A stretch of DNA of 64,000 nucleotides from Heliocybe sulcata. Its lineage: Eukaryota; Basidiomycota; Agaricomycetes; Gloeophyllales; Gloeophyllaceae. A model generated the notes under the pieces. It did no database searches. It saw only the letters and a program-made list of their open reading frames with translations, and had not been told where the DNA came from. The DNA lies in contig ML213545.1 of NCBI GenBank assembly GCA_004369045.1, positions 1 to 64,000 on the forward strand. Direction: 5' to 3'. Shown one piece after another: positions 1,810 through 60,219 of the stretch. A program made the translations under genes and the position numbers. How positions within the stretch are numbered: the stretch's first letter is position 1; each line of letters begins with the position of its first letter.

Positions 1810-1822
1810 CATGCTGGGGATA

Positions 1823-4021: not shown

Positions 4022-4171
4022 CGTATTTGTTACAAAGTAAAGTATAAGGAGGAAGCAAGGGTACAAGGAGCCCGATCCAAGAGCTGTAGCGAGCACAGAG
4101 GACTTAAGAGTTTCAGCCACAGCATCTGGGAGATCTCGCGCCAAATCCTTATTTGGTACCGCGTCCCGCAT

Positions 4172-4694: not shown

Positions 4695-5422
4695 ATGGAG
4701 AACGAGGGTGCCCGCCTTCGAGGTCGGACGGTAAGCTAGCATAGTGCACTTTTGCGGTGTCATGCTTAATGGCAACTGAACATCAGGGAACCTGGCAGTT
4801 CGTCTCGCACTCGCTACTCCAGGACCCAAGCAAGATGCACACTCTCCAGGACGATCTTGAGTCTTCTTTCTGGACTCTTCTCTATACGTCCCTACATCTG
4901 ATCCCCTGCTCTCTATCCAGGGAGGATGTGGCGTACATGCTAAGGACAGTCTTCGATGAGGCGAAATGGGACGACAGGATAGGCAGTTACGTCGGCGGGA
5001 TCGAGAAGTATATCATGATAACCTACGGCAAGTATCTCCAGCGAGGCATCCTCAGCGGGACATCTGGGATTGTCTTCGTGGCTCAGCCGCTGAATGAGTT
5101 GTTGCGTTCCATCCGCCGCCTCTTCCTTTGTTGGTACATGCGCATTTATGACATCGGCGAGGACCTTTCGGACATTGTCAGATCCGAATCCGACAAGCTC
5201 TTGACCTCAGAGGCGATTATCCAATTGTTCAAGGACGCATACACGAATCCGGGATGGAGTCACGAGATCGCGGACAGGCAAGAAGGGCTTGTTCCCGAGA
5301 CGGGCCACGACGGCTCCTCTAAACGCCCCAACGCCGAAGTGGGCGAGCAGTGGAGGAAGACTCAAAGAATATCCCGAGCCAGCGACGCCACGAGCTCTCG
5401 GCTGGAGATGCTCGACGAATAA
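4695..5422 (+). pseudogene. FunK1 kinase copy A, C-terminal fragment
   Basis: This is the C-lobe end of a fungal-type FunK1 protein kinase. Two exons are joined by a 56-nt intron at 4731-4786 (GTAAGC...CATCAG), the position of the last intron in every copy in this window. After the intron the frame reads GTWQFVSHSLL, the family signature HTLQDDLESSFWTLL, then KLLTSEAIIQLFKDAY and a Lys/Ser-rich tail ending SRLEMLDE. The catalytic loop and the metal-binding Asp region are absent because the copy starts at the ATG at 4695, just before GARLRGRT. The frame is open for 223 codons, but a kinase cannot result. A RIX7 tail fragment follows on the opposite strand, as in the other units. Its 3' flank is a direct copy of the flank behind FunK1 copy D. 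Confidence 0.75.
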
Positions 5423-5799
5423 GTAGGTTATAGTGCTCAGTGCTCCTGCATACGCCTCAAATCTATTGTATATTATGCTTCCGTCTATCTCATGCATCTT
5501 AGTCCGTCCGGTATTGGCTGATGTCAATATCACTTGTTTATCTCTTCCTCTCCATGGCGCGAACCGTATCTGAAACAGACGTTCACGCAGAGTTCTGTAT
5601 GCCGTGTCCCGCTTCCGTCTGGCCATTGTACGTCTATAGCTTGGATTGCATACGTGCCAGTTCATCTATCAATGGTAGCCGACCTTAGTAAGCTTCAGGA
5701 CGCCGTCATGCGCCTTGAGTCGCAGGAGCAAAGGATATAAGCTCTGAACCGCGTAATTATGCATACCGACGCAGCCTCGTAGTTGGATTACCCACGACA

Positions 5800-5905
5800 T
5801 ATATCACGCAACTTTCTGCCTCCGCTCAGCATTCTCATCTCGATTACCGCCTTCGTCACAGGCCACCCCGCATACCTGTCTCTCAGCGCCACATACCTCC
5901 TCTAG
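5800..5905 (-). pseudogene. RIX7-like 3' fragment (unit A)
   Basis: On the minus strand this reads RRYVALRDRYAGWPVTKA, matching the last residues of the intact RIX7-like protein (RRRYAALRDRYAGLPVTGG). Only the final 30-35 codons remain. It follows FunK1 copy A tail to tail, the same order and polarity as the FunK1/RIX7 pairs further right. Confidence 0.65.
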
Positions 5906-5924: not shown

Positions 5925-6015
5925 TGATTCTCCGGGACCGAGCTCACGTGCGGTCCAGCCACAGGCTTCAGGAAAGAACATCCCCATCCGGGGTTGGCGT
6001 CTATGCATTGTGGCA
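5925..6015. repeat. Short dispersed repeat, second copy near 35.05-35.11 kb
   Basis: About 80 bp here, containing GGGACCGAGCTCA and ACATCCCCATCCGG, recurs at roughly 35045-35112 in the same orientation with small differences. No coding potential is evident. It lies just outside the left end of the palindromic block. Confidence 0.5.
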
Positions 6016-6136
6016 TGCTGTATAGCTAGGAAGGTGCCATTATACATTGTCGTCCACCAAAAGAGAACTGTCCCTTCACGATCCGCGCTAGGGTCTGGTC
6101 GCTGAGAAATTTCGGACTTCGATCCTCCGGAGTTAA

Positions 6137-8175
6137 TTATTGTCGCCTCTTGATGATGCACTCGAACGTCTCTGGATGACTTCATTTACCCAGCAGGTGT
6201 TATAAGATCGTCAGAGACTAAGACCACATCTGCAATATCCACGTACCTAATGGATCCATCGGTAAACTTACCGGTCGGGAAAACCGGCTTTCCGTCCTTC
6301 ACTGGCGGCTCTATGTGAAAGGTAGCAAGCAGTGAAGCAAACACCAGCCACATCGTGGCGTCTGCTAGGTGAACACCTGCAATTAACTCAAATGATGAGC
6401 TACAGCAGGAAGATGGCAGGGTGGCAGTTACCAGGACATGCCCTACGCCCAAAGCCGAACAGGAAATCTCGCGGGTCCTGCTGCATCACTTGACCTAGAG
6501 TGGATAGGAAACGTTCTGGCTGAAACTTATTCGGGTCGGGGTACGTCTTCGGATCCTTGTAGTAACCTCTGTGCACCTGTAAGTTTGTCACCGCGCTAGG
6601 AGACCATGTGGCGTAACGTACGCGACATTGGTCATGATAATAGATCCCTTCGGGATGAAATACTCCTCATGGACGTCATCTTCCAGCGCAAGGTGAGGAA
6701 GACCTGGAATGGCAGATGCTATCAGTCTGGCCTTCTCCCCATAACTCGCCTACCAGTAGGTCCGAAAGTATAGAAACGCAGAGTCTCGAGATAGAGCGCC
6801 TGCACGTACGGCAGGCGTTCGCGATCTGCCAGACACGGTGCCTGCCCAGAACCGACTACCGCGTCGAGCTCGGCTTGCGCTTTCTTCTGTTCATCGGGGT
6901 GAATCGTCATTGCCAGGAACAGCACTTCGATTCCGGCCACGGTCTAAGTTGGCGAACCATGTTCAATGACGAGACAAATGAGATGAATTCGTCTCCTTAC
7001 CGTGTCAGCGCCCCCTAAGTTGCACTGAAGGTTAGTGCCGGAAGCAGTGGAGAGTGGGTGAAGCACGAACCGCTGTATATCCCAGCTGCGGCCCACTTCA
7101 GTGTATGTTCCTCCTCCCGAGTCACGTTCTTGCGGGATAGTTGGTCGGAGAGGAAACACGGCTCAGAGACTCCTGTCATCTGTTCAGTCGTCAGTCTCTA
7201 TTTGTGAGCGAAAGGACGATCAGGAGTACAATCCGTTCTTTCGCCCAATTATAGGGACGATTGAGCATCTCTTGAAGCGTCGCGTGGTACAGTCTAGCCT
7301 TGCGTTTCCAGGTCGCGCCGGGGAACCATTCTGGGATGTAGCGCACTGCGTGTGACGTGAGCTTACACAGTGCCACCGGACGTACACGGAGTACTTACAT
7401 ATTGGAAACACATCAACGAGGAAAGCATTCGCACCTGTAGCTTCGGAGAAGTGCTCCATGGCCTCATCTACCAGATTTACTAGCATATCATCCTCTTCAG
7501 AAGGGGTGTATCCATACGCCATTCGCAAGACGATCGACCCAGCCAACCTTGCGCAACGATATCAATACGCGATGTCAATATCATGGTTGAAACACCTACC
7601 TGCGAGTATGTCTTACCCACTCCTCTGGCGTAGAGTTAATTCGCTGCACATACATATCCACCTCTTGCTCAAGCAATGCCGTGAAGCCCTCCATCTTCGC
7701 TTTAGTGCCGATAAATTGAGACAACAGTCTGCGATATTCGCTCCACCGATCACTCGGCTGAGTTAGCGCAGGACCTTCCCCCCATCCTATAAGATCACCA
7801 GCCATAATCAGCTTCGGGCGCCCATTGTATATGCGACTTTTCTTGTTGAGCATGTCTATGGCGTATCGAGAGTCGTTCAGGACGATGATGCTTTGACCGA
7901 ATGCTGATACGTAGACGATAGGACCTGCGTAGTATGTTGGTGGTGGTTGTTGTGTATATTATGATAGATATACCGTATATTTCCGCCCATTTACGGAAGG
8001 TGATCCATGGTTGAGACCTGGGTAGGTCAAAAGCATTGCCGACGACGGGTAGTCCGAGTGGGCCAGGCGGTAAAGGGGCCGGGAAGCGCATACTTTGGCC
8101 GACAGCATGGAGAATGACAGCTGCAACGACTACTCCTCCTAGAAGAGCGCTGAGAGTAGTCATCCCGCTGTCCAT
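6137..8175 (-). CDS. Microsomal cytochrome P450, intact, 502 aa
   Basis: Eleven exons splice to exactly 503 codons. An N-terminal membrane anchor (ALLGGVVVAAVILHAVG) precedes the Pro-rich hinge FPAPLPPGPLGLPVVGN. The I helix carries SGGADT, with its codons assembled across two introns; the K helix has ETLR; PERF precedes the heme loop FGFGRRACPG with the Cys ligand. The last exon encodes SHPETFECIIKRRQ. Introns are 7973-7925, 7599-7548, 7398-7346, 7229-7180, 7070-7015, 7000-6944, 6753-6704, 6617-6577, 6431-6377 and 6246-6180. The overall pattern resembles basidiomycete P450s annotated as O-methylsterigmatocystin oxidoreductase-like; the substrate is unknown. It is expected in the ER with cytochrome P450 reductase. 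It is divergent from the truncated FAD monooxygenase to the right. The right palindrome arm keeps only its last exon. Confidence 0.9.
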
Positions 8176-8696
8176 AGCGCCCGTTTCGAACCGTCTGCGC
8201 TGGTGTTCAAGAACGCGAGGAGATGTCGACTATCACAGTACACGCATACAGCTCGAGCTGATGTATCATACAGGTCGCCGTTAGCTGGTCCGCACATGCC
8301 GACCAGCGTCATAGTGGGTCCTCGCATTCGGACAAGGCGGTCGACCGGTCATGTCGGAGGAGCAGGAAAGCATGTCGGTGGACCAGAGAAAGCTAACCAA
8401 CACGTCTTCCTGCTTGAATGCGCAAACTAATTGCAGCGGATACTACACGTGGCATCATGTTCACGAACCTACTCTGTAGGCTTAGTGAGACGGGATCAGA
8501 GATGACGACTTCAGGCGATGTTCAAGGTTGCTTACCAAATTTCCGAAACTTCATCGTAAAGACAAACTTCATCACTTTATTGGATGAGTCTGGTCTGGAG
8601 AGTGTGAGCGTCCTCGACGTAGACCGTGCAGAAGAATATTGTGGAACGCGTCCAGTCACGAGTCACCTGCCTCTTGATAAAACTCACGTGACTGGA
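8176..8696. other. Spacer between P450 and monooxygenase
   Basis: This is the shared upstream region of two divergent genes. An open frame at 8418-8891 on the plus strand runs into the monooxygenase in the wrong frame and is not supported as a gene. The missing N-terminal part of the monooxygenase would be expected here but is not visible. Confidence 0.4.
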
Positions 8697-9585
8697 GCCT
8701 ACGCGCGCACGGCATCAAGGCGATCTTCTCTGACGGCTCCTCCCACGAAGGCGCTCTCCTCGTCGGGCTGGACGGCGCCCACTCCGCCGTCCGCGCCACC
8801 CTCTGCCCGGCCCACCCAAAGCCGGACCCGCTCCCCGTCCACCTCCTCGGCCTCGAGCTCACCCTCACGCGCGCGCAGATCGCTCCCTTAATAGCCATGG
8901 ACCCCGTGGTCATGCTGGGAGACAGTCCCTTCGGGATCTGCGGGTTCTTCGCCGTCCTCGCGAGCCCCGAGGTTACGGCACCGCGTCCCTCGAGCCTGGG
9001 GAGCATAGGTGGCATGTCCAGCTCAATGTTTCGTGGTTGGAAGCCGAGGGAGCGCCTGGCGTCCCGGAGGGTAATGACGCTAGGATCGCACTCCTCAGGG
9101 AGAGATTAAGCCATATGTGGAGAGAGATGAGGGACGCTGTGGAGGGCAGCATCACGCCCGAGACGACCATAAATACTTTGACTATAGCTGACTGGGTAGT
9201 CCCCGACGAGGGCTGGGACAACCTAGGCGGACGAGTGACACTCGCCGGCGATGCCGCGCACACCATGACGATGTGTAAGTCCCCACTCCCGCATCCGCTC
9301 ACCGCATCGCTGACCTGAGTCAACCCAGTCCGCGGCGAAGGGTTCAACAACGCCGTTCTCGACGTGGCCAACCTCGTCAGCACCATCTCCGAGATCTACT
9401 CCACTCCCACTGTGGATGAGGATAAGCGCGCCGCGTTGATTACTGAGTACGATGCAGAGCTCTGCGATCGCAGCCCGCGTGTTGTTATTGCGAGCAGGCA
9501 GCAGTGCTTTATGATACATGACTGGGAGAAGTACGAGGCGTGGACGAAGGCGAGTCAGTGGGGCGCGCCGCATCAGAAGGTGTAG
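8697..9585 (+). pseudogene. FAD-dependent monooxygenase, 5'-truncated
   Basis: This is the central and C-terminal part of a flavin monooxygenase of the aromatic hydroxylase type. FSDGSSHEGALLVGLDGAHSAVRATL matches the region around the conserved DG motif (quoted pieces are separate blocks: SHEGALLVGLDGAHS). After a change of frame near 8960-9000 it continues WHVQLNVSWLEAEG, then the FAD-binding motif GGRVTLAGDAAHTM, and GFNNAVLDVANLV. A 54-nt intron lies at 9275-9328. The N-terminal GxGxxG half is missing and at least one frameshift is present, so it is not functional. A copy of the last exon, nearly identical, lies in the right arm at 25827-26067. Confidence 0.8.
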
Positions 9586-9619
9586 GGTTCGCGTAAGTTG
9601 CTGCCCTATTGTGATGGAA

Positions 9620-10392
9620 GTGCTATCGCTGGATAATGTATAAATCCCCGCTCACCAGTAGACCCGTAGAAATAGGTGGAGATAATTGTGTTCTGGTCGT
9701 AGCAATGGCATTGCCATATGATAGGTAACCTCGCCCCTCATCAGCAAATATCTCATAAGAGGAAGTACAATGAGTGGTAGTTGCAGTGAAGTCCTGTTGA
9801 CCAATCGAGCGAGGAACATCGGTGGTGCTGGCAAAGGAGGACAAGTTTGCTAACAGAGGTGCGCCCACGTATATCTTCGTTCGAAATCAGGTGGTCCAGA
9901 AGCGGTACTTATACCGGAGACAGCATCAGAGACTGGGACCGAAGATGAGAGCAGCTCAGAGAGTCGGTATCGCGTGAAAGCATCACCAGGAAGCTCAGAT
10001 GAGAGGAAAAGGAGCAGATATTCCGGATCAAGAGCATTGTTGACGTGTTGGGCTCGGCAAGGACAGATTGAGGACAAATCACGTTTGACACTCAGAGAAT
10101 ATCTGGCTGCACGAGTACGGAGCGTACTCAGTGTATCCCAGAACTCCCGCAAAAAACGTCTGACCATCGACGTGAAGATTTTGACCGCCATCGAGCCAGA
10201 GTAAAATCCGATCAGAATGCACGCGTAGTAGACACTACAGACCTCTCTGTTACTCCCGATGTGCGTCCGGAGCCGAGGTTCTATGCCAGAGTAGCAGCGG
10301 TTCGATGCGGCTTGCTTCATGTATATCCACACCAAATTAATTGATAGGCCTTGTCGACGCTGGCAAGCGGCGAGTATGCAGTGGGTTCTCAA
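9620..10392 (-). pseudogene. Conserved remnant of unknown function, left-arm copy
   Basis: Two open stretches on the minus strand contain NALDPEYLLLFLSSELPGD, RLSELLSSSVPVSD, SSYEIFADEGRGYLSYGNA and TRTQLSPPIS. The mirror copy at 25315-25825 preserves the same reading frames (NALDPEYLLHVLPPELSGD, SYEIFPDERGGHLSYDNA, ARTQQSPPIS), with differences that mostly keep residue character. That suggests a formerly coding C-terminal domain rather than chance. The two frames are not joined by an obvious intron. I do not recognise the family. It converges on the monooxygenase. Confidence 0.45.
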
Positions 10393-10860
10393 AAACGTTG
10401 ATACAGACGTGTAGGCACGCTAAGGGCAGAACTCGATAGCGAGCACGGCTGTTGTCGAAGACCGTGGAAGTAAGAAACGTGCAAACGACGGGTCACTGTC
10501 TCATCTATGATCACGTGCCACGTGACTGAGACGCATGCCTCCACGCCATTGTACCCGTCAATGTAAGCGAACGGTCCTCTGGGTTCGCCTCTTCCACCGC
10601 CATTGATTCACCACTAGTCACTGACCAGGAGTTTTCTCTCGCGACGCTTGGGCTGGAGAATTTTGTAGCCAGGGCGCGTATATTATGCTGATGCCGGACC
10701 CTTGGGCGCTGAAAAGCCTTGTGGTTAACTTATGCAGCATAGGGGACAAGTTTACTCGGGCACAACTCAATATCTTAACCTCAATTGTGTGGCCTGGTTG
10801 CTCGCGTTCGAACCGAGCCGTTCGCTCTCCTCCACTAGCACTGCCTACAGACCACTGTCC
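10393..10860. other. Spacer upstream of the left RIX7 copy
   Basis: No gene is seen. The stretch from about 10740 onward is alignable with the reverse complement of 25120-25260 in the right arm, so the duplication covers the upstream region of the RIX7 copies. Confidence 0.45.
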
Positions 10861-11020
10861 GGGGTCGTTCTATACTAGGACCCAAGACTCGCCAAAATTT
10901 GTCCAAGTCGCGTTCTTCAAGTTCACTTCGTTCAGCCGTCCGGGATGGATATTCCCGTAAGTCACTATATTTTTATTCTTCAGTGTCTTATGACAACGAG
11001 TTAGGTAGGCACCGAACTCA

Positions 11021-12725
11021 TTGAACAGGTCGATGCAAGGCCTCTGGTCGTCGCATCGGCGAAAGGTGAACTTGAACGCCGTACCCGTGTTTTCTGTGAG
11101 TAGCCCGCCAGCGGTAACACCATCCAAGGAGAATGCCGATGACGGCCAACTACCTTCAAATGGCGACGCTGAAACCCCCATGCCGAATCCCAGACCCGCA
11201 GCCGTACCCCCCGCTCCCGACCCGTCGACTTCAGTTACGAACAAACGGAAGACTCGCATGTCCAGTACAATCGAGTAACAAGCGCAGAAATCTCAATTCC
11301 GGCGTGGCATCTGGGAAGGACTCGTCCACGAGGCTCTCGGTTGTGTGGGATAGACGCATGTGTGGAGACGCTGCTCGAGTTAGTGGCGATCCCGCTGTGC
11401 TACCCGCTATGGCAGGAGTGAGTATCCGTCGTCTATATATCTGTCCTGCGCAATAACGTGTATGCAGGAACTGGGCGTGCCATTCATCAGCATCTCTGCG
11501 ACATCGGCTGTGTCGGGGATGTCAGGAGAGTCTGTAAAGACGCTGCGGCATACGTTCAAGGAAGCCAAGGTGTGTGTTACGGAAGTAAATTATTCGTCTC
11601 TCGTCTCTTACACCTTGGTACCGATTAGCTCTCTGTCTAGTTCATAGATGGCATCCGCCATCCCCCAAAAAAGCGAGAGTGCCCAGACCCATGACGACTT
11701 CTTCCTCCTGTCTCTCAAGCAAGTCCAGCTCTCATCCAAGTGTGAGGGCTTCGCGATGATCCAGACATCACCTGAGCGGAGGTCGGCACACTGCGGGCAC
11801 CAGAGACAAGCTCTAGATGGTCATCATGCAGCCGATAGGGAGGCCGGCGCGTGGGCATCGAGGCGGATGTGGCGTGACCGCCTGGATGCCGGAAGACCTT
11901 GCTTGCGAAGGCGGTGGCGAACGAGACCAGGGAGAACTTTATAGTGTAAAGGGACCGGAGCTGTTGAACAAGGTCAGCTCGATGTGATTCACCTTGTTTA
12001 ACTCCGGCTGACCGGCTATCTGCTTTAGTATGTCGGAGAGAGCGAGAGGGCTGTGAGGCAGGCTTCTACACGAGCACGGGCTTCAGCACCGCGCGTCGTC
12101 TTCTTCGACGAGATAGACGCGCTCGTCCCACGTCGTGATGCTCCACTGGTAAGGCGGTCCCTTTTGCTTCCTCTTGCCCAGCTAAACCCAGCGGCTTTCA
12201 GTCCGGATCCTCAGCGCATGCGTTCAGTACCACGCTCACCGAACTCGATGGCCTGGATTAGCGCAAGGCCGTGTACGTCCTCATCGCGACCAACAGCCTG
12301 GATATGATCGACGGCGCAATGTGCCGCCCAGGCTGGCTCGACAACCTCTTATACGTGGACCTGCCCTCCGCGGACGAGCGCATCGAGATCATGCGCACCG
12401 TCACGCGCAAGGTCTGAAGACGCGGTGATGCAAGTCGAGCAGCTAGTGAGGGAGACGGGGGTGGTGGCGCTGCGGAGGACGTCAGAGCGGTTGGAGGTTA
12501 TGGACGGGGAGGTAACGGAGGTGGTGAAGGAAGTGGCCTTTCAGGTGGATGATTTTATGAAGGCTGTGGACAAGATTGGGCCGAGTGTGAGTGCGGCGCA
12601 CAGGAGGAGGTATGCGGCGTTGAGAGATAGGTATGCGGGGTTGCCTGCGACGGGAGGCGGGAAGCGGGGGAGAACGATGAGCGGAGGCAGGGAGTTCTGT
12701 GATTTACTCATGCTGCGAGCAATCT
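11021..12725 (+). pseudogene. RIX7-like AAA ATPase, decayed left-arm copy
   Basis: The start reads SMQGLWSSHRRKVNLNAVPV, followed by the Pro-rich linker, as in the intact right-arm copy. Between CCGCTGTGCTACCC and GCTATGGCAGGAG near 11400 a deletion has removed the first Walker A motif. Later pieces correspond to ELGVPFISISATSAVSGMS, part of the second ATPase module ([19 protein letters not shown]) and the C-terminal KIGPSVSAAHRRRYAALRD. The pieces lie in different frames with several gaps, so it is a clear pseudogene. It converges on FunK1 copy B. Confidence 0.8.
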
Positions 12726-13152
12726 GATTACGAGTGTTACCTGATTAAACAAAACTATCTGAGGTCGACTATCGAACGCACTGGCCCGTGAGATTTTCAG
12801 ACTCTCTAGGCGTAGAAGAGGGTACAGTGTGTAATCTCATTCCTCAAATCCTGAAGTCGACCTCTGTCAGGCCTTGTGAGGATTCGCGCGGCGGGAATTA
12901 GAATAAATAAATGACATAAAAAATCAACCAATACTGGAGGGGCATGAGACAGAAGCATAGATGTACGATAAATCACGACTAGATAAATTTGAAGCGCCCC
13001 CTGGGAAGGAAGAATAAATAGACGATACAAAAATCCGAATCGACCTAGGGAGAAGGGAGAGACGCGCCCGCTACATGGAAGCATGAATCCACAAAGGATT
13101 CAAGGAGTGCGTGAAAGCACATACCACTGATACAACCTCCCGCAGGGCCTGC
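12726..13152. other. 3' flank shared by FunK1 copies
   Basis: No gene is seen. The sequence is a diverged copy of the FunK1 3' flank at 14520-14840 (same orientation) and at 21900-22430 (inverted). Shared landmarks are TGACATAAAAAATCAACC-type and ATCACGACTAGATA-type strings. It shows that the duplicated units extend several hundred bases beyond the FunK1 stop. Confidence 0.5.
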
Positions 13153-14146
13153 TCACTGATCGAGTATCTCCAGCCGAGCACTCGTAGCGTCACTGGTCCG
13201 AGACTTGCGCTGAGTGTTCCTCCGCTGCTCACTTCCTTCTGTGACGACGCGTTTGGAGGAGCTGCCCCCGGGCCGTCCCTCCTCGGAAACAAGCCCTTCT
13301 TGCCTGTCCGCGATCTCGTGACTCCAGTCCGGACTGGTGTACGCCTCCTTGAAGAGTTGGATAATGGCCTCCGAGGTCAAGAGCTTCTCGGCTTCTGCTT
13401 TCGCATCCAGGCGGCGCGTCTCACGGAGTGCCATGATGTGGTACGTGTCCCAGTCCTGGAAGAGGAAGAGGAGGGACTGCACCAGATCATTCAGCGGAGT
13501 CGCCGGATCACGAAAAATGATCGGTGGTGTCCCAGCGATACTGTTTGGTTTAATATAGTTGCCGTGCATTATTATCTTCAACTTTTCGTTCTCGCCAACG
13601 TAAGAGCCTTGGTCGTCGTCCCACCGAGACTCGTCAAAGACTGTCTTTAGCATGTTCGCCAGACGCATTCCCGATAGAGAAGAGGGGATGAATTTTAGGG
13701 CCGTATAGAGAAGAGTCCAGAAAGAAGACTGGAGATCGTCCTGGAGCGTGTGCGCCTTGTATGGGTTTATAAGGAGCTGATAAGAGAGAAACTGCCAGGT
13801 TCCCTAATGTCCAAACGTCCTTTAGCATGATAACGAGAACATGTGCTATGCTCGCTTACCGTCCGACCTCGGCGACGCGCACCCTCGGTGTCAAGGGTCT
13901 CAACCCGTCTGCACTGGTCCCAGTTAATTAAGATGCCATGGACGTCCCCGTTTCCGTGCGGTACGAATAAAATATTGCGCGGACTGAAGTCTCTGTCTAG
14001 CATACCTACTTTGCTGTACGCTTCACAGTGGGTTCAAAATGGCTGCGTAAGCAAGTTGCGGCATTTAGCAAGGAAAAGGTCGACGTACCGATCAGTACAT
14101 CATGCATAATCTTGACAATCGCGCACTGCGAGTGCGAGGCCGACAT
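13153..14146 (-). pseudogene. Mini-FunK1 copy B
   Basis: The ATG at 14146 opens MSASHSQCAIVKIMHD, a fusion of the first six residues of the long FunK1 to its C-lobe. Downstream are MLDRDFSPRNILF (the HRD motif reads DRD), INWDQCRRVET, then the 56-nt intron and GTWQFLSYQLL, HTLQDDLQSSFWTLL and KLLTSEAIIQLFKEAY. The last exon is open to the stop at 13153. The first intron has GTACGT, but the acceptor used by the other copies reads TTTTGAA instead of TTTTTAG or GTTCAG, so splicing into frame seems lost. It therefore looks like a pseudogene that kept a long open frame. A CATATAAA box lies at 14198-14191. Confidence 0.7.
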
Positions 14147-14842
14147 GTTAGTAGACGTGGAGATGAGGATGTATCGACACCGTTACCCTGTTTTATATGC
14201 AGCTAGTATTTCTATTTGGCTGCAGCCCTGCGACTTGAGTCATGCTGTGTCAATTTGCGGGAAGGTTGCGGGAAGGAACAAGGGAAGAGGACGCGACAGT
14301 CACGTGCATCAGCGATGGCAGTGCGGTTCGCACGTGTGGCACGCATGTTGCGTCGGTATCGATTCGTGCGCGGTTCAGAGCCGATGGATGATCGAACAGA
14401 ACTCACTGAGGTCCGACTATCAGTATACGAACACGCCCGTAGAATTTCCAAACTGCAGGGACCAAGAGGAGCAGTGTATAATCCGATTCCTCAAATCATG
14501 AAGTCGACCTTGAGCTTGAGGCTTGAGCTTGACGATTCGCACCGCGGGACATTAAAATAAATAAATGACATTAAACATCAACCAATACTGTACGGACTGA
14601 GGGGCATGAGATACACAGAAGCATAGCTGTACGATAGATCACGACTAGATATCTTAAACCTAAAGCGCCCCGGCGCGGGGGAAGAATCGATAAATGATAC
14701 GGAAATCGGAAGCAACCTGAAGAGAACGCATAGACGCGCGCGCTACAGGGAAGCATAAACATATACAATGAACTCGAGAAGTGCGTGAAAGCACGAAGCA
14801 CTAATAGAACCTTCCACTAATAGAACCTTCCGCAGGGCCTAT
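14147..14842. other. Promoter of copy B and 3' flank of copy C
   Basis: No gene is seen. The left part holds the copy B promoter, with GATGCACGTGACTGTCGCG (minus strand) around 14310-14292 and a TATA-like box. The right part is the conserved FunK1 3' flank. B and C are therefore tandem, same-strand copies about 1.7 kb apart. Confidence 0.5.
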
Positions 14843-15837
14843 TTACTCATCGAGCATCTCCAGCCGAGAACTCGTAGCGTCGCCGCTCTGAGACTTGCGT
14901 TGAGTCTTCCTCCGCTGCTCGCTTGTTTCAAGTTTTGCAATTGCGCGTTTGGAGGAGCTGCCCCCGGGCCGTCCCTCCTTGGGAACAAACCCTTCTTTCC
15001 TGTCCGCAATCTCGTGACTCCAGTCCGGATCGATGTATGCATCCTTGAAGAGTTTGATAATGGCCTCCGAGGTCAAGAGCTTCTCGGATTCGGATCTGGC
15101 AATATCTGAAAGGTCCCCATCGACGTCATTAATGCACATGTCCCAATAACGAAAGAGGCGGCGGAGGGAATGCAACAACTTGTTCAGCGGAGTTGCCGGA
15201 TGATTAAAGATAATCGGAGTGTGCCCAGCAATACCATTCTGCAGAATATAGTTGCCTTTGCTTATGATCATATATTTCTGGCTCCCGCCGACGTAATAAC
15301 CCAAATCGTCGTCCCATCGAGCCTCATCGAAGACTTTTGACAGCATATTCGCCAACGGCATTCCCGATAGAGAGGAGGGGATGATCCGTAGAGCCGTATG
15401 GAGAAGAGTCCAGAAAAAAGACTGGAGATCATCCTGGAGCGTGTGTGGCTTGCCTGGGGTCATGAGGAGCCAATGAGAGATAAACTGCCAGGTTCCCTTG
15501 ATGTTCAGTCGTCCTTGAGCATGGTACCGCAAACATGTGCTATGCTCGCTTACCGTCCGTCCTCGGAGGCATGCACCCTCGCTGTTCAGGGTCTCAACCC
15601 GTCTGCACAGGTCCCAATCAATCAAGATGCCACGGACGTCCCGGTTTCCGTGCGTTACGAATAAAATGTTGCACGGACCGAAGTCTCTGTCTAGCATACC
15701 CACTTTGCTGTACGCTCCGCAGTGGGCTAAAAATAGCTGAGTAAGCAAGGTGCATGCAGCAGGGAAAAGGGCGATGTACCGATCAGTGCATCATGCATAA
15801 TCTTGACAATTGCGCACTGAGAGTGCGAGGCGGACAT
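14843..15837 (-). CDS. Mini-FunK1 copy C, open, 294 aa
   Basis: Three exons (15837-15780, 15726-15554, 15496-14843) give exactly 295 codons. The protein starts MSASHSQCAIVKIMHDAL and keeps only the kinase C-lobe: MLDRDFGPCNILF (catalytic loop with DRD in place of HRD), LIDWDLCRRVET (metal-binding Asp region), GTWQFISHWLL, HTLQDDLQSFFWTLL and KLLTSEAIIKLFKDAY. The N-lobe with the ATP-binding loop and Lys is absent, so catalysis is unlikely. If expressed, it could be a pseudokinase-like fragment (inference). All splice sites are canonical and a TATATAA box lies 47 nt upstream of the ATG. It is head to head with copy D. FunK1 kinases are expanded in Agaricomycetes and their substrates are mostly unknown. 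Confidence 0.65.
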
Positions 15838-15883
15838 GTTAGGAGACGTGCAAATGAGGATGTATCGATACCCTTACCCTGCC

Positions 15884-16157
15884 TTATATATACAGTTGGT
15901 TTTTTTAATTGCTTGCAGCTCTGCGAATCGAGTCACCTCAGACTTGCCAGTGTTAAGTTGTGGCAAGAACCAAGAGAAGACGCGATAGTCACGTGCATCA
16001 GCGATGCGGGGCCGCGAGGCGCATCCGCACTGCCACCGCTGATGCACGTGATCGCCACGTTCTCGTGCCTTGTTTCTTCCCGCAAATTGCCAAGGCTAGT
16101 CTTGAGGTGACTCGTGTCGCAGGACCACCGGCAGCTACAAATGCTAACTGTATATAA
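15884..16157. promoter_or_regulatory. Palindromic bidirectional promoter between FunK1 C and D
   Basis: Copies C and D start head to head. TATATAA boxes lie at 15890-15884 (minus) and 16151-16157 (plus), each about 47 nt from its ATG. Between them is a perfect 14-nt inverted repeat, CACGTGCATCAGCG at 15990-16003 and CGCTGATGCACGTG at 16037-16050. Each half includes the CACGTG hexamer, also found upstream of copies B and E. The palindrome centre of the whole block falls here, near 16020. Confidence 0.7.
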
Positions 16158-16203
16158 GACCGGGTGACGGTGTCGACACATTCTCATCATCGCATCTATC
16201 AAC

Positions 16204-17175
16204 ATGTCGGCCTTGCGCGCCCAGTGCGACATTGTCAAGATCATCCATGACACACTCGTCGGTACATCAGTACTCAGTCTTTGTCGTTCCAGGCTGCACC
16301 TTACTGATGAAGCTACGTTCGGATTGTACAGAAGCCTACGACAGAGCAGCTGTGCGACACAGAGACCTGCGTACTAGTGCGCAGAACAGCTTATTCGTAG
16401 CTCGCGAGAGCGGCGGTGCCCATGGCACCTTAACTGCCTGGGACCTGTCCCTGCGAGGTCGGACGGTAAGCGATCATAGCACATGTTCGCGTTATCACGC
16501 TCAAGGACGCTTGGACATTAGAGAACCTGGCAGTTTGTCTCTTATCAGCTCCTCATAAACCCAAGCAAGACGCACACGCTCCAGGACGATCTCCAGTCTT
16601 CTTTCTGGACTCTTCTCTATACGGCCCTAAAATTCATCCCCTCTTCTCTATCGGGAATGCGTCTGGCGAACATGCTAAAGACAGTCTTTGACGAGTCTCG
16701 GTGGGACGACGGCCGACGCTCTTATGTTGGCGGGAACGAAAAGTTGAAGATAATAATGTACGGCACCTATATTAAACCAAACAGTATCGCTGGGACACCG
16801 CCGATTACTTTTCGTGATCCGGAGACTCCATTGAATAATCTGGTGCAGGCCCTCTTCGCCCTCCACCACGATTGGGACATATACAGTAATCCGATGAACA
16901 ACGAGAGGTACCGTTTAGCTGCAAAGCCGGAAGCGGAAAAGCTCTTGAACTCGGAGGCCAACATCAAACTCTTCGAGTATGCATACAGCGATCCGGAATG
17001 GAGTCACAAGATCCCGGACAGTCGAGAAGGGTTGTTCCCAGCAATGGACGTGGCCGCTGCTCCGAATGCACTAGCTCAGAAGAGGGCGAGCAGCGAAGGA
17101 AGACTCAGCACAAGTCCCAGCCCAGCGACACCACTGGCACTAGCTCGCGGCTGGAGATGCTCAATGAGTAAGTAG
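16204..17175 (+). pseudogene. Mini-FunK1 copy D
   Basis: The ATG at 16204 opens MSALRAQCDIVKIIHDTLVG, the same internal fusion as copies B and C. The catalytic region is worn: RHRDLRTSAQNSLF keeps HRD, but the DWD motif reads AWDL and the RRVETLNTEG segment is missing. After the 56-nt class intron beginning near 16468 the frame gives HTLQDDLQSSFWTLL, MRLANMLKTVFDESRWDD and KLLNSEANIKLFEYAY. Near 17050-17100 the frame shifts relative to the other copies: the expected end SSRLEMLNE lies in another frame. I call it a pseudogene. The segment from its last exon through 18045 is a direct repeat of copy A and its flank. Confidence 0.7.
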
Positions 17176-17598
17176 GCCCTACGGAAGGTAGTATTAGTGC
17201 TCGGTGCCTTCATGCACTGCTCGAATCTGTTGTATATTTATGCTTCTATTAATCTCATGCATCTCAGTCCGTTCGGTATTGGCTAATGTTAATGTTACTT
17301 ATTTGTGCCTCCTCTCCACGGCGCGAATCGTAGCTGTAACAGACATTCACACAGAGCCGCGTCCTGCTTCCATCTGGCCATGGTACGTCCATATTTTGGA
17401 TCGCATATACGTGCAGTTCGTCTATTGATGATATTCAGCCTCAGTGGGTTTCAGTACACCGTATGCATGCATCTTGGGCCGCGGGCGTGAAGGGCATCAC
17501 CTCTGAACCGTGTCCCCATGGATATCGACGCATCATCGCAGTTGGATTACTCACTACCTATATCACACAACTTCCTACCTCCGCTCAGCATTCTTACC
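17176..17598. other. 3' flank of FunK1 D, direct repeat of 5423-5800
   Basis: No gene is seen. It aligns in the same orientation with the flank behind FunK1 copy A, including TAATGTTACTTATTTG-like and ATCACACAACTT-like strings. This shows that the A and D units are direct duplicates. Confidence 0.5.
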
Positions 17599-18055
17599 TT
17601 ACTTCCTGCTTCCCGTCACAGGGAAACCCGCATACTTATCTCTCAGCCCACGTATCTCCTCCTCTGCGCCACACTCACCCTCGACCAAATCTTCTCCACC
17701 GCCTTCACAAATCATCCACCTCAACCGCCACCTCCCCTCCCATCTCCTCCAACTGCCCCAACACCCTCCGCAGCGCCCCCACCCCGACCTCCCTCGCAAT
17801 CGCCGCCAGATCAGCGCCGCTGTACCCCTCGCATCGTTCCCTAACAAGCTGTTCAGTCTGCGCCAGTGCGTCTGCAGCGCCGAGCGGCACCTTGCGCACG
17901 ACGGTGCGCATGATCTCGACGCGGGTGTCGCGGAGGGCAAACCGACGTACAAGAGCCTGTCAAGCCTTCCTGGGCGGCACGTTGCGGAGTCGATCATATC
18001 GGGGTGGTTCGTCACGGCGAGGACGTACACGCCCTCGTAAGCTTCCCACAATGCG
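17599..18055 (-). pseudogene. RIX7-like 3' fragment (unit D)
   Basis: The minus strand begins [20 protein letters not shown], followed by [15 protein letters not shown], and ends [13 protein letters not shown]. This is the end of the second ATPase module and the C-terminus of the RIX7-like protein. At least one frame change follows LYVGLPS, since the later residues are correct only in another frame. It ends abruptly at about 18050, next to a FunK1 fragment. Confidence 0.7.
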
Positions 18056-18075
18056 AAGTGGGATCGCATTTTTGG

Positions 18076-18220
18076 CTGCACGTCGGCGGGACCCAGAAAC
18101 TGATCATGATGAACCGTGGTGACTATCTCAAGCGGGGCACCATCAAGTGGAAGCCTGAGATGGTCTTCGATCCCTCCCCTGCGTGTTCCATGTTTGGTAC
18201 CTGGGCACTAACTGCATGAC
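18076..18220 (+). pseudogene. FunK1 fragment F
   Basis: A short open stretch reads [20 protein letters not shown], then [12 protein letters not shown]. It corres­ponds to the VGGNEKLKIIMHGNYI segment of the other FunK1 copies. About 45 codons remain. It abuts the RIX7 fragment and appears to be a separate, more diverged insertion or duplication scar. Confidence 0.55.
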
Positions 18221-19340
18221 CCCCAGCGAGTGGCGTTTGGATATGAAACCGGAAGCATAGCTTTTGCGTGGACTTCCGGTTCTTTCATCACGAAAGGTTA
18301 GCTATCGACTTTAGTCGGGCTATACGGGCAGAAGCCGGTATTGATACATTTTTGGGCACTATAAGGTGATCATAACGGCGACAACAAGTACCTCGTGAAC
18401 GATGCGCCATCTTCAAGTTATTTTCCTTGTATTCCACGTCCCGGACAAGTATCACAATCCCGCGGACACGCTCGAGGGTAGGACGGCCACGGAGCGCAAG
18501 ATCTCTACTAATGGAATATTGGAAACGGCGAATGAAAGCGAGCATGGGGGCATAAGTCCTTGTATTCAGAAAAGCGGGCACGCGAGCACTGTCCGCGTAG
18601 ACTGCGTGGCATTCGTGTATGACTCATGTCTACAGTAGGAATCCAATAGGTATCTCAGCTCCCGATACCTGTAGTGCGGGCCCGTTCTACATGAATTTAT
18701 TTGTAGAACGCCACACGGGAAGCAAGCTGTAAGGGCACTCCTCTGCTGGGGTAGATTCCATGAGGGTGGCATGTTCCATATGCTGCAGCGTCGCCGCATG
18801 TGCTGCTTTGCTATATCAAAGGCGTCAGGCGGAAACGGAATTTCCGGCCTGGAAGTTCGAAGCGTCGAGATTGCTCCCCGTCGGGCTCGACGGCCTCTGG
18901 AAGTGATACGCGAAGAAGAATGGAATACGGCCTTAGCACAAGGAAAATATAATGGACGTACATTCGAATTTGTTTCAACAAAGGGACTCATGAAAACCGA
19001 AGGGATTTGTGGGCGCTGGTATGCAGGCGAAATGAATTTCGTTTGCCGTCGTCCCCGGCATTCACGCCCGTTGCGACCCAGAACGCAAGTTGCACGACAA
19101 GAGAATCAATAACGTGTTGTATTATGCTTGCGATCTAGCCGCCCTTGTTGCTTGTCTGGCAGGAGAAGGAAAGCAGTGGTGAATTTGGGACGCCACACCG
19201 GCAGAATCCTGGAGAAGAACCATGCACGTGACCGTCGCGTCTTGTTCCCTTGTTTCTCGCCACAACCTGACACGGCAAGTCTGCGGTGACTCGCATCGCA
19301 GGGCCAACGTGAATTGCACATAATAATACCGCGCCGTACG
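18221..19340. other. Spacer upstream of FunK1 E
   Basis: No gene is supported. A plus-strand frame at 18771-19112 (113 codons) has no recognisable domain. The last 150 bases form the copy E promoter, containing ATGCACGTGACCGTCGCG near 19212. Confidence 0.4.
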
Positions 19341-19347
19341 TATATAA
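19341..19347 (+). promoter_or_regulatory. TATA box of FunK1 E
   Basis: TATATAA lies 47 nt before the ATG at 19394. The same box and spacing occur upstream of copies C and D, and the CACGTG-containing element lies about 120 nt further upstream. Confidence 0.6.
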
Positions 19348-19393
19348 GCCAGGGTGAGGGTGTCCATACGTCCCCATCATCACCTCTACTAAT

Positions 19394-21896
19394 ATGTCGG
19401 CCTCACACTCTGGCTCTGCCTCTTCGCCCATCAAGGGTACTCGAGCTGGTTACCAAGAACACGCTCAGAAGAAACGAGAACACGTTGACCAGGAGCATCT
19501 TAAGATTGCTCGGGAAATGTCTGGATACTTCGTCGGCCCTATGCCCGTCGAGGACTTTCTCGCCGAGTTCACTCCTTCCTCAGCTCTTCCTGAACACGGA
19601 TCAGCGTTCAAGGATGCTTTTAAGCCCATGGCTGATGTTACTGGGTCCTCGAATGCGTCGAAGACGCCAGCTCAGGGCAAGGCGCAGGGTGGCGCCAAGG
19701 CTGGAGGCACGTCCTCTGAAAGTCGCCACGACGACTCCACTGCCGCGACCATATCTGGAGGCAAGCGTAAGCAACGCAAGGAGTATGCTATGTATCCGCA
19801 ATTTGTGAGTTGCTTCTGGCCATGTTTACATCTTCACAAGCTGTCGTCTGATCGTCGCCGTAGATAAAGAGTATCAACGACGCGTCGCTATGTCCAGGCC
19901 TGAAATTTGTGGACACCTCTAACAAGCCCGATAAAAGTGTTCCCGAGGACGTGAAACCAGACATAAGTGTCTACCCTCAGAACTCCAAGCTCACTACGAC
20001 ATCCTGGAAACATGTCGAGCTCGCTATCGAGCTCAAGGCCACCAGTGCACAAGATCCTTTCGTAGACCCTAAAGTTAAGGCATCTGACGCGAGCGAAAAG
20101 CAGTCCCCCGTCCCTCCTCAGTCCTCGGAGATGTCGGAAGAGTCTACTGAGAGGCGCTTCGACTCTCTGACCCTCCAACGCTCGGAGACTTATTCCCAGG
20201 AGGGCGGCAGAAAGACGCCATACGAGTTTGAGAGGGGCAGCGATGAAGCTATTAGAATCAGAGGCCAACTGGCAGACTACGCAACGCTCCAGTGGCAGCA
20301 TCAATTTCGTCTTTTCCTTTTCCAAGTCATCATCTTCGGCGACTTGGCCCGACTGCTTCGCTATGATCGGACGGCTGTCGTTGTCACAGATGCGTTCAAG
20401 TATCAAGAGACCCCCTACTTGGCACAGTTCTTATCCCGCTTCAATCAAATGACCGGGGCTCAGCGCGGAAATGATCCCACTGTCACTCGCGCCTCCACTC
20501 AGGAACGCGACCTGGCGGTGGAGATCTTGCGCGCCTACAAAGATCACGTCGACAAAAAGAACATGTGGAAAGTGGAAGTACATGATCAAGCCGGCGTCAA
20601 GAATCTGATCATTTCCAAGCCTACCTTCCGCTCCCCTGCAACTACCGGTCGAGCCACTCGATGCTATGTTGCAGCCGATTTGGCTGAGCGTAAACCCGTC
20701 TTTCTCAAGGACTCTTGGCGCTATGTTGTAGACGGCATGGAGCGTGAAGGAGATATCTATGAGCGCTTGCACAGCAATCACGTTTCCAATATCTCCAAAG
20801 TGCTCTACCACGGCGACCTGCTCGATACTACGAAAGGCGATCGTCAGTCCACGATCAGCGCAGAGCTGGCCAAGAAGCCATGGGCAATGAAGACGAGGAC
20901 GCTTGACAAACATCAACATTATCGTATAGTGCTGGATGTGGTCGGCCGCAGGCTGAATCAAGCACCGAGTTCCTGGGCGATTGTGAAGATCATCCATGAT
21001 GCCCTCGTCGGTACGTCTGTCTTTGCCACGTTATGCGGACCCTCACTTAAACAGCTACGTTCAGCCCATTGGGAGGCCTACAGCCAAGCAGGGGTGCTTC
21101 ATCGGGACCTGAGTCCGCATAACATCTTATTCATAGACAATGGGAGCGGGGACGTCCATGGCATCTTGATTGACTGGGACCTGGGCCGACGGGTTGAGAC
21201 CCTGAACACCGAGGGTGCGCGTCTCCGAGGTTGGACGGTGAGCGAGCATAGCATATGGTTGCGGTATTCCGCTCAAGGCCGTTTGGACATTAGGGAACCT
21301 GGCAGTTCGTCTCTCATTGGCTACTCAGGGCGTTCTGGACTCTCCTCCATACGGCCCTGAATATCATCCCGTGTTCTCTATCTGGAATAACTCTGGCGAA
21401 CATGCTAAAGACAGTCTTCGACGAGGCTCGGTGGGACGAGGTTCTGGGTTGTTACCTTGGCGGGAACGAAAAATTGAACATAATAATGCACGGTCACTAT
21501 ATTCTCCCATACTCTGCAACTGAACGAGCTCAAATTACCTTTCATGATCTGGCGACTCCACTGAATGATCTGGTGCAGTCCCTCCTCTTTCTCTTCCAGG
21601 ACTGGGACACGTACCACAACATGGCGCTCCGTGAGACGCGCCGCCTGGGTGCGAAAGCAGAAGCCGAGAAGCTCTTGACCTCTGAGGCAATCATCCAACT
21701 CTTCAAGGACGCATACACCAATCCAGCCTGGAGTCACAAGATCGCGGACAGGAGAGAAGGGCTTGTTCCAGAGGAGAGACGGGGCAGCTCCTCCAAGCGT
21801 GCCATCGCAGAAACAAACGAGGAGCAGAGGAAGACTCAGCGCAAGTCTCAGACTGGCGACGCTACGAGTTCTCGGCTGAAGATACTCGAGGAGTAA
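19394..21896 (+). CDS. FunK1 fungal-type protein kinase, long copy E, 777 aa
   Basis: Four exons splice to exactly 778 codons; introns are 19805-19863, 21011-21064 and 21238-21293. The N-terminal 200 residues are low-complexity and Ser/Thr-rich. The kinase region carries GVLHRDLSPHNILFI (HRD catalytic loop with the downstream Asn), ILIDWDLGRRVETLNTEG (the DFG-position Asp in the FunK1 form DWD) and GTWQFVSHWLL. The family block HTLQDDLxS, present in copies A-D, is missing here through an in-frame loss of about 16 residues, so activity is uncertain. The tail is Lys/Ser-rich. This is the only copy with the N-terminal domain and the N-lobe. It converges on the complete RIX7 gene. FunK1 kinases are related to fungal choline-kinase-like folds and expanded in mushrooms; the targets are unknown. 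Confidence 0.85.
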
Positions 21897-22430
21897 GTAG
21901 GCCCTGCGGAGGGTTGTATCAGTGCTCTGTGATTTCACGCACTCCTCGAATCCTTTGTATATTTATGCTTCCGGGTAACGCGCGCGTCTGTCCGTTCTCT
22001 TCAGGTTGATTCCGATTTCCGTATCATTTATTTATTCTTCCTCCCCACCGGGGCGCTTCAAATTTAAAGATATCTAGTCGTGATCGATTGTACAGCTATG
22101 CTTCTGTGTATCTCATGCCCCTCAGTCCGTACAGTATTGGTTGATGTTTAATGTCATTTATTTATTTTAATGCTCCGCGGTGCCAATCGTCAAGCTCAAG
22201 GCTCAAGGCCTCACAGAGGTCGACTTCAGAATTTGAGGAATTGGTTTATACATCGCTCCTCTTGTATCGATCCTACAGTTTGGACATCCCATGGGCGCGT
22301 TCGCGTACTGATAGTCGACCTCACTCAGTTTCCTTCGATCACACAAGAGAAGGAGCCATGGTGTCCGAGCCGCGCACGAATCGATACCGACGCAACGTCG
22401 TAATCATATTGCTCGCGGCATAATCATAAC
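21897..22430. other. Shared 3' flank between FunK1 E and RIX7
   Basis: No gene is seen. It is the inverted counterpart of 12730-13150 and 14520-14840. AT-rich strings such as TGTCATTTATTTATTTTAATG recur in shortened form in each copy. It probably holds the terminators of two converging genes. Confidence 0.5.
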
Positions 22431-24970
<2,540 letters not shown>

Positions 24971-25314
24971 CGACCTGTTCAATGAGTTCGGTGCCTACCT
25001 AACTCCTTGTCATAATACACTGAAGGATAAAAAAATAGTGACTTACGGAAATATCCATCCCAGACGGCTGAACGAAGTAAAGTTGAAGGACGCGTTGAGG
25101 ACGCGACTTGAATAAATTTTGGCGAGCTTTGTTTCGGGGTCCTAGCCAATACGTCAAGACCCCGAACAGCTCATAGTGATCAGTATTTGTGGCCAGAGGG
25201 CAGTGGGCTCAGAACGCTAGCGAGCAGGCCACACAATTGAAGTTAAGATATCTAGTCGTGCCCGGATTGACCGTCGTGCTTTTCTGACGGTGGCTAACTC
25301 TACTCTAGTGCTCT
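24971..25314. other. Upstream region of RIX7, duplicated in left arm
   Basis: No further RIX7 exon is recognised. On the minus strand a donor-like GTAAGTCACTAT and acceptor-like GAGTTAG occur at about 25053-25005, which would allow an upstream exon. Its translation shows no family match. The same arrangement occurs at 10950-11010. Confidence 0.4.
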
Positions 25315-25826
25315 TTTTTGGTCTTCGCGGCCAAAGGTGGAGGATCCCCCAAGGAAAATGGGCACGACCTGAGTCACTTTTGGCCTATAACAACGCCCTC
25401 GATCCAGAATATCTGCTCCATGTCCTCCCTCCCGAGCTCTCTGGCGACAACTTCATTTGATACCTACTGTCTGAATTGTCCTCATCTCCATTCCCAGTCT
25501 CCTCTGAGTATACCACTTCTGATTACCTGATTCCGAACGAGACTGTCCAGTGCGCGCAGCTCTCAGTCCTCATTCTCCTTCTCTAGCTAACAGGTCACGC
25601 TCCGGCAATATCCCTTTCTCGGCTGCTTGCTAGGGTTTCACTGCGACTACGACTCATCGCACTCATCTTACGAGATATTTCCTGATGAACGCGGAGGTCA
25701 CCTATCGTACGACAACGCAATTGTCACGGCAAGAACACAACAATCTCCACCTATTTCTGCGAGTCTATTGGCGAGCAGGGCTTTATACATTTCCCCGACG
25801 GCAACATTTCCATCGCAATAGCGCAA
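25315..25826 (+). pseudogene. Conserved remnant of unknown function, right-arm copy
   Basis: This is the mirror copy of 9620-10392. Conserved blocks are NALDPEYLLHVLPPELSGD, SSYEIFPDERGGHLSYDNA and TARTQQSPPIS. Stop codons interrupt the frame between blocks, so it is broken here, but the blocks agree with the left copy at the protein level. The family is not recognised. Confidence 0.4.
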
Positions 25827-26067
25827 ACCCTACACCTTCTGATGCGGCGCGCCCCACTGACTCCCCTTCGTCCACGCCTCGTACTTCTCCCAGTCATGTA
25901 TCATAAAGCACTGCTGCCTGCTCGCAATAACAACGCGCGGGCTGCGATCGCAGAGCTCTGCATCGTACTCAGTAATCAACGCGGCGCGCTTATCCTCATC
26001 CACAGTGGGAGTGGAGTAGATCTCGGAGATGGCGCTGACGAGGTTGGCCACCTCGAGGACGGTTTAT
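25827..26067 (-). pseudogene. FAD monooxygenase, last exon only
   Basis: The minus strand reads VANLVSAISEIYSTPTVDED, then ALITEYDAELCDRSPRV and ends SQWGAPHQKV. It matches the last exon of the left-arm monooxygenase with only a few substitutions. Everything upstream has been deleted, and the break lies directly against the last exon of a P450 copy. Confidence 0.8.
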
Positions 26068-26115
26068 GAAGTCATCCGGAGACGTTCGAGTGCATCGTCA
26101 AGAGGCAACAGTATT
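26068..26115 (+). pseudogene. P450 last exon, right-arm remnant
   Basis: The plus strand reads HPETFECIVKRQQ, matching the last exon (HPETFECIIKRRQ) of the intact P450 at 6137-6179. The stop following Q in the intact gene reads TAT here. Nothing else of the P450 remains in this arm. Confidence 0.7.
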
Positions 26116-26344
26116 TGACTCTGGAGGATCAAAGTCCGAAATGTCTCAGCGACCGGACTCTAGCGCGTTCCGTTGGCGAGCGTAAAGGGACAGTTCTCTT
26201 TTGGCGGACGTCAATGTATAATGGCACCTTCCTAGCTATACAGCATTTTGAACGCAGTACGACGATAATCCAAGGTCATTCGGGAACGAGAAGGCACATA
26301 TGCAAATATGCAAAGACTGGAGAACGGGTATGCCCGCCCTCTCG

Positions 26345-60211: not shown

Positions 60212-60219
60212 GTATATAA
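60212..60219 (+). promoter_or_regulatory. TATA box of zinc-finger gene 2
   Basis: GTATATAAG lies about 240 nt upstream of the ATG, soon after the duplicated string GCACTTTGACATCA. The equivalent place in copy 1 reads CTTAAAAG. Confidence 0.5.

What the first reader, a model, noticed from the sequence alone, without database searches (positions are those of the whole stretch)
6013..26243. A 20-kb imperfect palindrome built from FunK1 kinase, RIX7, monooxygenase and P450 genes
Both arms carry the same gene order in mirror image around about 16020: FunK1, RIX7, an unknown remnant, FAD monooxygenase, P450. Each arm has kept different parts: the left keeps the intact P450, the right keeps the long FunK1 and complete RIX7. 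Such arms can convert one another or drive further rearrangement. Arm divergence argues against an assembly artefact.
Basis: seen in the sequence. Interest (0 to 1): 0.75.

Follow-up and report, generated by a model that had tools for sequence, protein, structure and literature searches.

The report
Mirrored cluster of half-kinase genes
In a fungal genome, a stretch that looks like a DNA mirror image is part of a larger cluster in which copies of a fungus-specific kinase gene, most of them lacking half of the kinase, were multiplied in both orientations around a ribosome-assembly gene while their remaining protein parts stayed readable.

Summary
The mirror symmetry is real: best inverted self-match 1935 bits, at most 37.4 in 30 Markov controls. 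It is not one palindrome. An inner, spacerless palindrome (14750-17246, axis about 15998) is two FunK1 copies, F2 and F3, head-to-head on a shared promoter; outer arms (6015-14125 against 20974-26246) have other axes, mostly 17.55-18.0 kb. The right arm holds the full-length FunK1 (F4) and the only intact-looking RIX7 found. The left holds a broken RIX7, the P450 and the FAD-monooxygenase; the right keeps only a monooxygenase tail.

The array continues on contig C31, which probably abuts the window's left edge: the two contig ends carry complementary parts of a DUF6589 gene. The two loci hold 10 copies, one a fragment, of a FunK1 subfamily found nowhere else. Five copies share one junction fusing promoter and start codon to the kinase C-lobe, without the N-lobe. 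Exon 3 is open in 9 of 9 copies tested, dN/dS 0.36-0.65. A 157-bp tract shared by oppositely oriented copies suggests conversion.

Best reading: local duplication and conversion that amplified an N-lobe-less, probably non-catalytic FunK1 gene still under selection.

The parts
506..1806 (+). 3' part of a DUF6589 gene near the contig edge; a complementary 5' part lies near the end of contig C31
   Evidence: PF20231 positions 228-303 and 297-410 here, 2-213 at C31:234074-234703
1826..4246 (-). RecQ-like DEAD-box helicase (subfamily name recalled)
   Evidence: PF00271 E 7e-14 and PF00270 E 2.8e-14
4649..5902 (+). F0: FunK1 copy without 5' end, exon 3 open; RIX7 3' tail scrap in 5763-5902
6015..6185 (.). 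outermost left-arm block, mirrored at 26066-26246
   Evidence: 86%
6200..8163 (-). cytochrome P450 gene, left arm only (3' end approximate)
   Evidence: PF00067 E 8e-6 for 7599-7958; N-terminus at 8134-8163 and haem-type motif at 6430-6459 by eye
8681..9582 (+). FAD-dependent monooxygenase (start approximate)
   Evidence: weak PF01494 on two stretches; motifs by eye
9353..10041 (+). monooxygenase tail and following block, mirrored at 25389-26062
   Evidence: 79%
10757..12706 (+). R1: broken RIX7 copy
   Evidence: matches R4 in several frames, some with stops
13153..14146 (-). F1: FunK1 copy without N-lobe; exon 3 open, a stop just before the conserved part of exon 2, DWD changed to NWD
14843..15837 (-). 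F2: FunK1 copy without N-lobe; exons 1, 2 and 3 open
15838..16203 (.). shared divergent promoter of F2 and F3 and axis of the inner palindrome (about 15998); mirrored TATA-like and CACGTG elements
16204..17172 (+). F3: FunK1 copy without N-lobe; DWD changed to AWD, frameshift near the 3' end of exon 3
17563..18035 (-). R3: RIX7 3' fragment with stops
18036..19221 (.). linker without a match in the genome in the search made (a search that also missed known matches of its neighbour)
19222..19411 (+). promoter and first codons of F4, homologous to those of F1, F2, F3, C31b and C31d
   Evidence: not listed by the search
19394..21896 (+). F4: the only full-length FunK1 copy of the subfamily found
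   Evidence: PF17667 E 1.3e-28; 19864-20961 has no second match in window 1-30000 or C31:222000-230999
22431..25264 (-). R4: RIX7/NVL AAA-ATPase, the only intact-looking copy found (ends approximate, exons not resolved)
   Evidence: AAA and lid domains; best solved match NVL E 5.1e-73
25389..26062 (-). right-arm remnant with the monooxygenase tail
26066..26246 (.). outermost right-arm block, next to the remnant; about 3.2 kb present on the left is missing between them

Best explanation
This is a locally amplified segmental-duplication array around what is probably the fungus's single RIX7 gene. An ancestral unit (FunK1 and RIX7 facing each other, followed by the monooxygenase and the P450) was duplicated several times, in direct and in inverted orientation; nested inverted duplications give the palindrome look. 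In one ancestral FunK1 copy about 1.56 kb was deleted, removing the kinase N-lobe and fusing promoter, start codon and about six codons in frame to the stretch just before the catalytic loop. This form spread: five copies keep promoter, start and the same junction; other copies lack the 5' end. The duplicated RIX7, P450 and monooxygenase parts decayed or were lost, while the last FunK1 exon stayed open. The copies exchange sequence by gene conversion, also between opposite orientations. Shown: layout, shared junction, open frames, dN/dS below 1, one conversion-like tract between opposite copies. Inferred: that the short proteins are made, are non-catalytic and act by binding partners or substrates of FunK1 kinases; the deletion rather than a gain in F4; order and mechanism of the duplications.
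For: Layout. Junction: F1, F2, F3, C31b and C31d begin MSA(S/L)(H/R)(S/A)Q and have the exon-1 donor at nucleotide 58; their promoter block is found at these 5 places (which misses the diverged F4 promoter). Frames: exon 3 open from acceptor to a stop in 9 of 9 copies, in F3 with a late frameshift; neutral simulation on the terminal branches predicts 27.7 stops, joint probability of none 3e-13 (branch lengths from the weakly supported tree). dN/dS 0.36-0.65 in 36 of 36 pairs; six short copies mean 0.48, codon bootstrap 0.38-0.61. Internal control: R1 and R3 fall into several frames with stops. Conversion: F1-F3. Private subfamily: 10 of 14 matches lie at the two loci, the other 4 are 34-37% identical.
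Against: F0 and C31c lack the shared promoter and start yet keep exon 3 open, so an open exon does not show expression. F1 has a stop before the conserved part of exon 2, C31a a stop in it, C31b lacks the DWD stretch, F3 has a late frameshift; only F2 and C31d are open in all three exons. Exon 2 shows no more relaxation than exon 3 (dN/dS 0.44, 0.23-0.68), which sits poorly with loss of catalysis. The RIX7 control is not clean: C31 keeps one RIX7 stretch of 150 aligned residues without a stop. Conversion from F4 could help keep frames open. The tree has 0 of 6 inner branches fully supported. No transcript data. AlphaFold gave no usable model (mean pLDDT 32.4 and 43.9), and the exon-3 profile found no solved relative up to E 10.
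Confidence: 0.6

Rival explanations
1. All copies without N-lobe are dying pseudogenes; frames are still open because decay is recent and conversion from F4 keeps refreshing exon 3.
For: Most copies carry a defect in exon 2 or 3 or lack a start. F4 groups with F1 and F3 on the tree, and conversion-like runs exist. One decayed RIX7 piece on C31 also keeps an open stretch.
Against: Short copies differ at synonymous sites by mean dS 0.58, far for recent refreshment of the whole exon; dN/dS is below 1 between copies that share the deletion; R1 and R3 in the same array did decay.
Confidence: 0.25
2. A single old inverted duplication (a true 20-kb palindrome) that later lost different parts on each side.
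For: Both arms share the order FunK1, RIX7, monooxygenase tail.
Against: Different axes, strong direct repeats, five FunK1 copies in the window, and the same unit in mixed orientations on C31.
Confidence: 0.1
3. Assembly artefact: wrong joins of repeats or alleles produced the mirror layout.
For: The array touches a contig edge, and repeats break assemblies.
Against: Copies are only about 66-86% identical; the inner axis is a symmetric promoter; the same promoter and junction recur on C31.
Confidence: 0.05

Closest known systems
FunK1 (Pkinase_fungal, PF17667) lineage-specific kinase expansions
   Same: FunK1 profile match and lineage-specific duplication, as described for Paracoccidioides and Coccidioides (passages of PMC3203195)
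   Different: 10 copies of one subfamily in a mixed inverted and direct array around RIX7, most without the N-lobe
Palindrome arms kept alike by gene conversion (for example mammalian Y chromosome; recalled)
   Same: inverted copies with signs of sequence exchange
   Different: arms only 76-86% identical, gapped, with several axes; exchange also suggested between copies of the same orientation
Pseudokinases that arise from duplicated kinases (Mad3/BubR1, passages of PMC3591445)
   Same: a duplicate that lost the kinase domain or its residues
   Different: here the N-lobe alone is missing and the short form was multiplied; loss of activity not tested

Membership tests
FunK1 kinase (PF17667) | profile match over the curated cut-off | tested here: met
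   F4 100.3 bits and F2 38.1 bits against 24.1; F0 22.5 and F1 14 bits are below it
FunK1 kinase (PF17667) | N-lobe present in the short copies | tested here: not met
   F4 19864-20961 matches only itself in window 1-30000 and C31:222000-230999; the F2 match starts at profile position 298
Active protein kinase | catalytic-loop HRD...N and DxD-type motif (recalled) | tested here: inconclusive
   F4 has HRD...N and DWD; 6 of 6 short copies with exon 2 depart from F4 at one or more of these places, F2 only at H, C31d at N and W
Active protein kinase | phosphotransfer activity | not testable with these tools
   needs biochemistry
Palindrome (single inverted repeat) | one common axis for all mirrored blocks | tested here: not met
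   axes at about 15998, 16.1 and 17.55-18.0 kb
Arms under gene conversion | tracts of unusual identity between arms | tested here: met
   F1-F3 Bonferroni 0.018 among 36 pairs; the cross-arm pairs F2-F4 and F1-F4 pass only in the four-copy test
RIX7/NVL AAA-ATPase (R4) | two AAA domains and best similarity to NVL or Rix7 | tested here: met
   (on the middle frame only)
RIP-mutated repeat | raised composite RIP index; C-to-T changes concentrated at CpA | tested here: not met
   composite index negative in 23 of 23 1-kb windows of 4-27 kb; C-to-T differences not concentrated at CpA

The most novel reading that the evidence does not exclude
A fungal kinase subfamily has been turned into a diversifying array of proteins without the N-lobe (pseudokinase decoys or regulators), kept readable by selection and reshuffled by conversion across direct and inverted copies, around an essential ribosome-assembly gene and beside its one full-length kinase.
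Probability: 0.25. Interest if true: 0.65.

Novelty: new variant of a known kind. Interest (0 to 1): 0.5.

Why it matters
FunK1 kinases are greatly expanded in several fungi, the mushroom Coprinopsis cinerea among them, and their function is not established (passages of PMC3591445 and PMC3203195). If selection keeps the C-terminal half without the ATP-binding half, that half does something by itself; this cluster, with one full-length kinase and many short relatives, is a place to test what. It also shows how a palindrome seen in raw sequence can be the visible part of a mixed array.

Tried and rejected
RIP as the cause of arm divergence: rejected. FunK1 genes being specially prone to opposite orientation: rejected as a general claim, 15 of 24 neighbours within 40 kb against 14 of 21 for P450. 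Frameshift counts from DNA alignments were set aside because gap placement made them unreliable (they gave 2-24 for exon 3 as well); protein-level matching was used instead. P450 and monooxygenase at first seemed absent (searches scored only 20 of 113 and 92 of 262 candidates); some searches found them, so that doubt was wrong. Structure predictions were uninformative. Telomere: only scattered TTAGGG-type hexamers, no array seen at the window's start or the end of C31. RecQ-like helicase as a subtelomere mark: 4 weak matches elsewhere, no support. Papers: seven searches; judged by titles and abstract beginnings, none listed treats FunK1 in inverted arrays or FunK1 without the N-lobe; the library is partial and I read passages of two papers only.
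Full report
WHAT WAS CHECKED. The window is contig C43:1-64000 (contig length 85,774) of a 31.6-Mb, 51-contig genome. Self-comparison confirms antiparallel matches between about 6-14 kb and 21-26 kb, far beyond chance (1935 bits against at most 37.4 in 30 Markov controls).

ANATOMY. The symmetry has more than one axis. The inner one (about 15998) is spacerless: F2 on the minus strand and F3 on the plus strand have their start codons 366 bp apart and share a mirrored promoter with TATA-like and CACGTG elements. The main outer blocks centre at 17.55-18.0 kb, the small outermost one at 16.1 kb. Direct repeats are prominent too. In all, the window has FunK1 copies F0 to F4, RIX7 pieces R0 (in F0), R1 and R3, and the complete-looking R4. 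Only the left arm has the P450 and the body of the FAD-monooxygenase (weak). The right arm passes directly from the monooxygenase tail block (to 26062) to the outermost block (from 26066), so the 3.2 kb of left 6186-9352 have no counterpart there.

A LARGER ARRAY. A search with F2's promoter and exon 1 lists five places: F1, F2, F3, C31b and C31d; it misses the F4 promoter, which one search shows, and the partial one of C31a. A search with F2's exon 3 lists 14 matches: five in the window, five on C31:223.4-231.8 kb (one a fragment), and four elsewhere at 34-37% identity. C31 also carries RIX7 pieces. C31 ends at 235,722. Its last 1.7 kb holds DUF6589 profile positions 2-213 on the plus strand; window 710-1404 holds positions 228-410 on the plus strand; the only other DUF6589 matches are on C9 (whole) and C16 (positions 9-181). 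C31 and C43 are therefore probably neighbours, with one DUF6589 gene interrupted by the gap. At least 1.7 kb lies between the two halves where C9 has none, so something may be inserted there. This stays inference until reads are seen: no sequence overlap was found between C31's end and the window's start, and C16 too carries only a 5' part.

THE SHORT KINASES. F4 (19394-21896) is full-length. F1, F2, F3, C31b and C31d begin with a homologous promoter and start, MSA(S/L)(H/R)(S/A)Q, and then join at once the sequence just before the catalytic loop; 5 of 5 have the exon-1 donor at nucleotide 58. The F4 stretch from about 19411 to 20973 is missing in them. A shared junction suggests one ancestral deletion before the copies spread. 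Catalytic positions vary: F4 HRD/DWD; F2 DRD/DWD, F1 DRD/NWD, F3 HRD/AWD, C31a HRD/D-stop-D, C31b HGD and no DWD, C31d HRD/DGD with N changed to K in the loop.

SELECTION. Exon 3 runs open from splice acceptor to a stop in 9 of 9 copies tested; the tenth, C31:231510-231791, is a fragment and was left out. In F3 a frameshift changes the last part. In 36 of 36 pairs dN/dS is 0.36-0.65. For the six short copies the mean is 0.48 (0.38-0.61) in exon 3 and 0.44 (0.23-0.68) in exon 2 (F0 and C31c left out, stop codons skipped); for F0-C31c it is 0.48 (0.34-0.68). Simulated neutral substitution on the terminal branches predicts 27.7 stops where none is seen. These tests treat tips as independent and use a weakly supported tree. 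That the 5'-less copies F0 and C31c pass too is unexplained: other promoters, or recent loss of the 5' end. F2 and C31d are open in all three exons. As an internal control, RIX7 copies R1 and R3 are broken, but the control is not clean: the C31 RIX7 piece has one open stretch of 150 aligned residues while its middle part falls into three frames with one stop.

CONVERSION. In a GENECONV-like permutation test with nine copies and 36 pairs, F1-F3 (opposite orientation) share 57 consecutive polymorphic sites over 157 bp (p 0.0005, the floor of 2000 shuffles; Bonferroni 0.018), and F0-C31c share 20 (Bonferroni 0.018). F1-C31a and F2-C31b fall just short (0.054). In the four-copy test F1-F3, F2-F4, F1-F2 and F1-F4 pass (Bonferroni 0.003-0.024) and F2-F3 and F3-F4 do not (0.087, 0.285). 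So exchange is supported between opposite copies and probably between direct ones.

RIX7. R4 shows AAA and lid domains of two AAA modules, and the best solved relative of its middle frame is NVL (E 5.1e-73). With that frame as query the best-scoring match outside the array is 42% identical (C17); some short matches of under 40 residues are higher, up to 74%. R4 is probably the only RIX7. Its full exon structure was not resolved. That RIX7 is essential is recalled from yeast.

VERDICT. Observation partly confirmed, interpretation partly supported. The mirror layout by itself is ordinary local duplication. The unexpected part is that what was amplified is a kinase gene without its N-lobe that still looks protein-coding. 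Interest 0.5.

Noticed in passing
window 506-4246; C9:895870-899226: DUF6589 lies beside a RecQ-like helicase here, and on C9 a DUF6589 gene also has a weak match to that helicase within 3 kb: a possible recurring two-gene unit. No paper in the library holds the term DUF6589.
   Followed up: partly
window 28629-31754 and 59254-62596: A second, direct duplication about 30 kb apart in the same window (three blocks, 68-77% identity).
   Followed up: no
G000 C15:87960-93805 and 102435-108267 (L017-L019): Another inverted FunK1 pair with 5.8-kb arms, 93% identical, kinase frames of 634 and 635 aa.
   Followed up: partly
G000 C35:118547-136544 (L020, L021 in part): FunK1 hits in the order plus, minus, minus, plus, the order also of F0, F1, F2, F3; the last three are DNA-similar.
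   Followed up: no
window 47196-47634: Tandem duplication of about 219 bp, 82% identical.
   Followed up: no
window 26350-27189: Frame with a MYND finger (E 2.2e-9) and weak ankyrin matches just outside the right arm.
   Followed up: no
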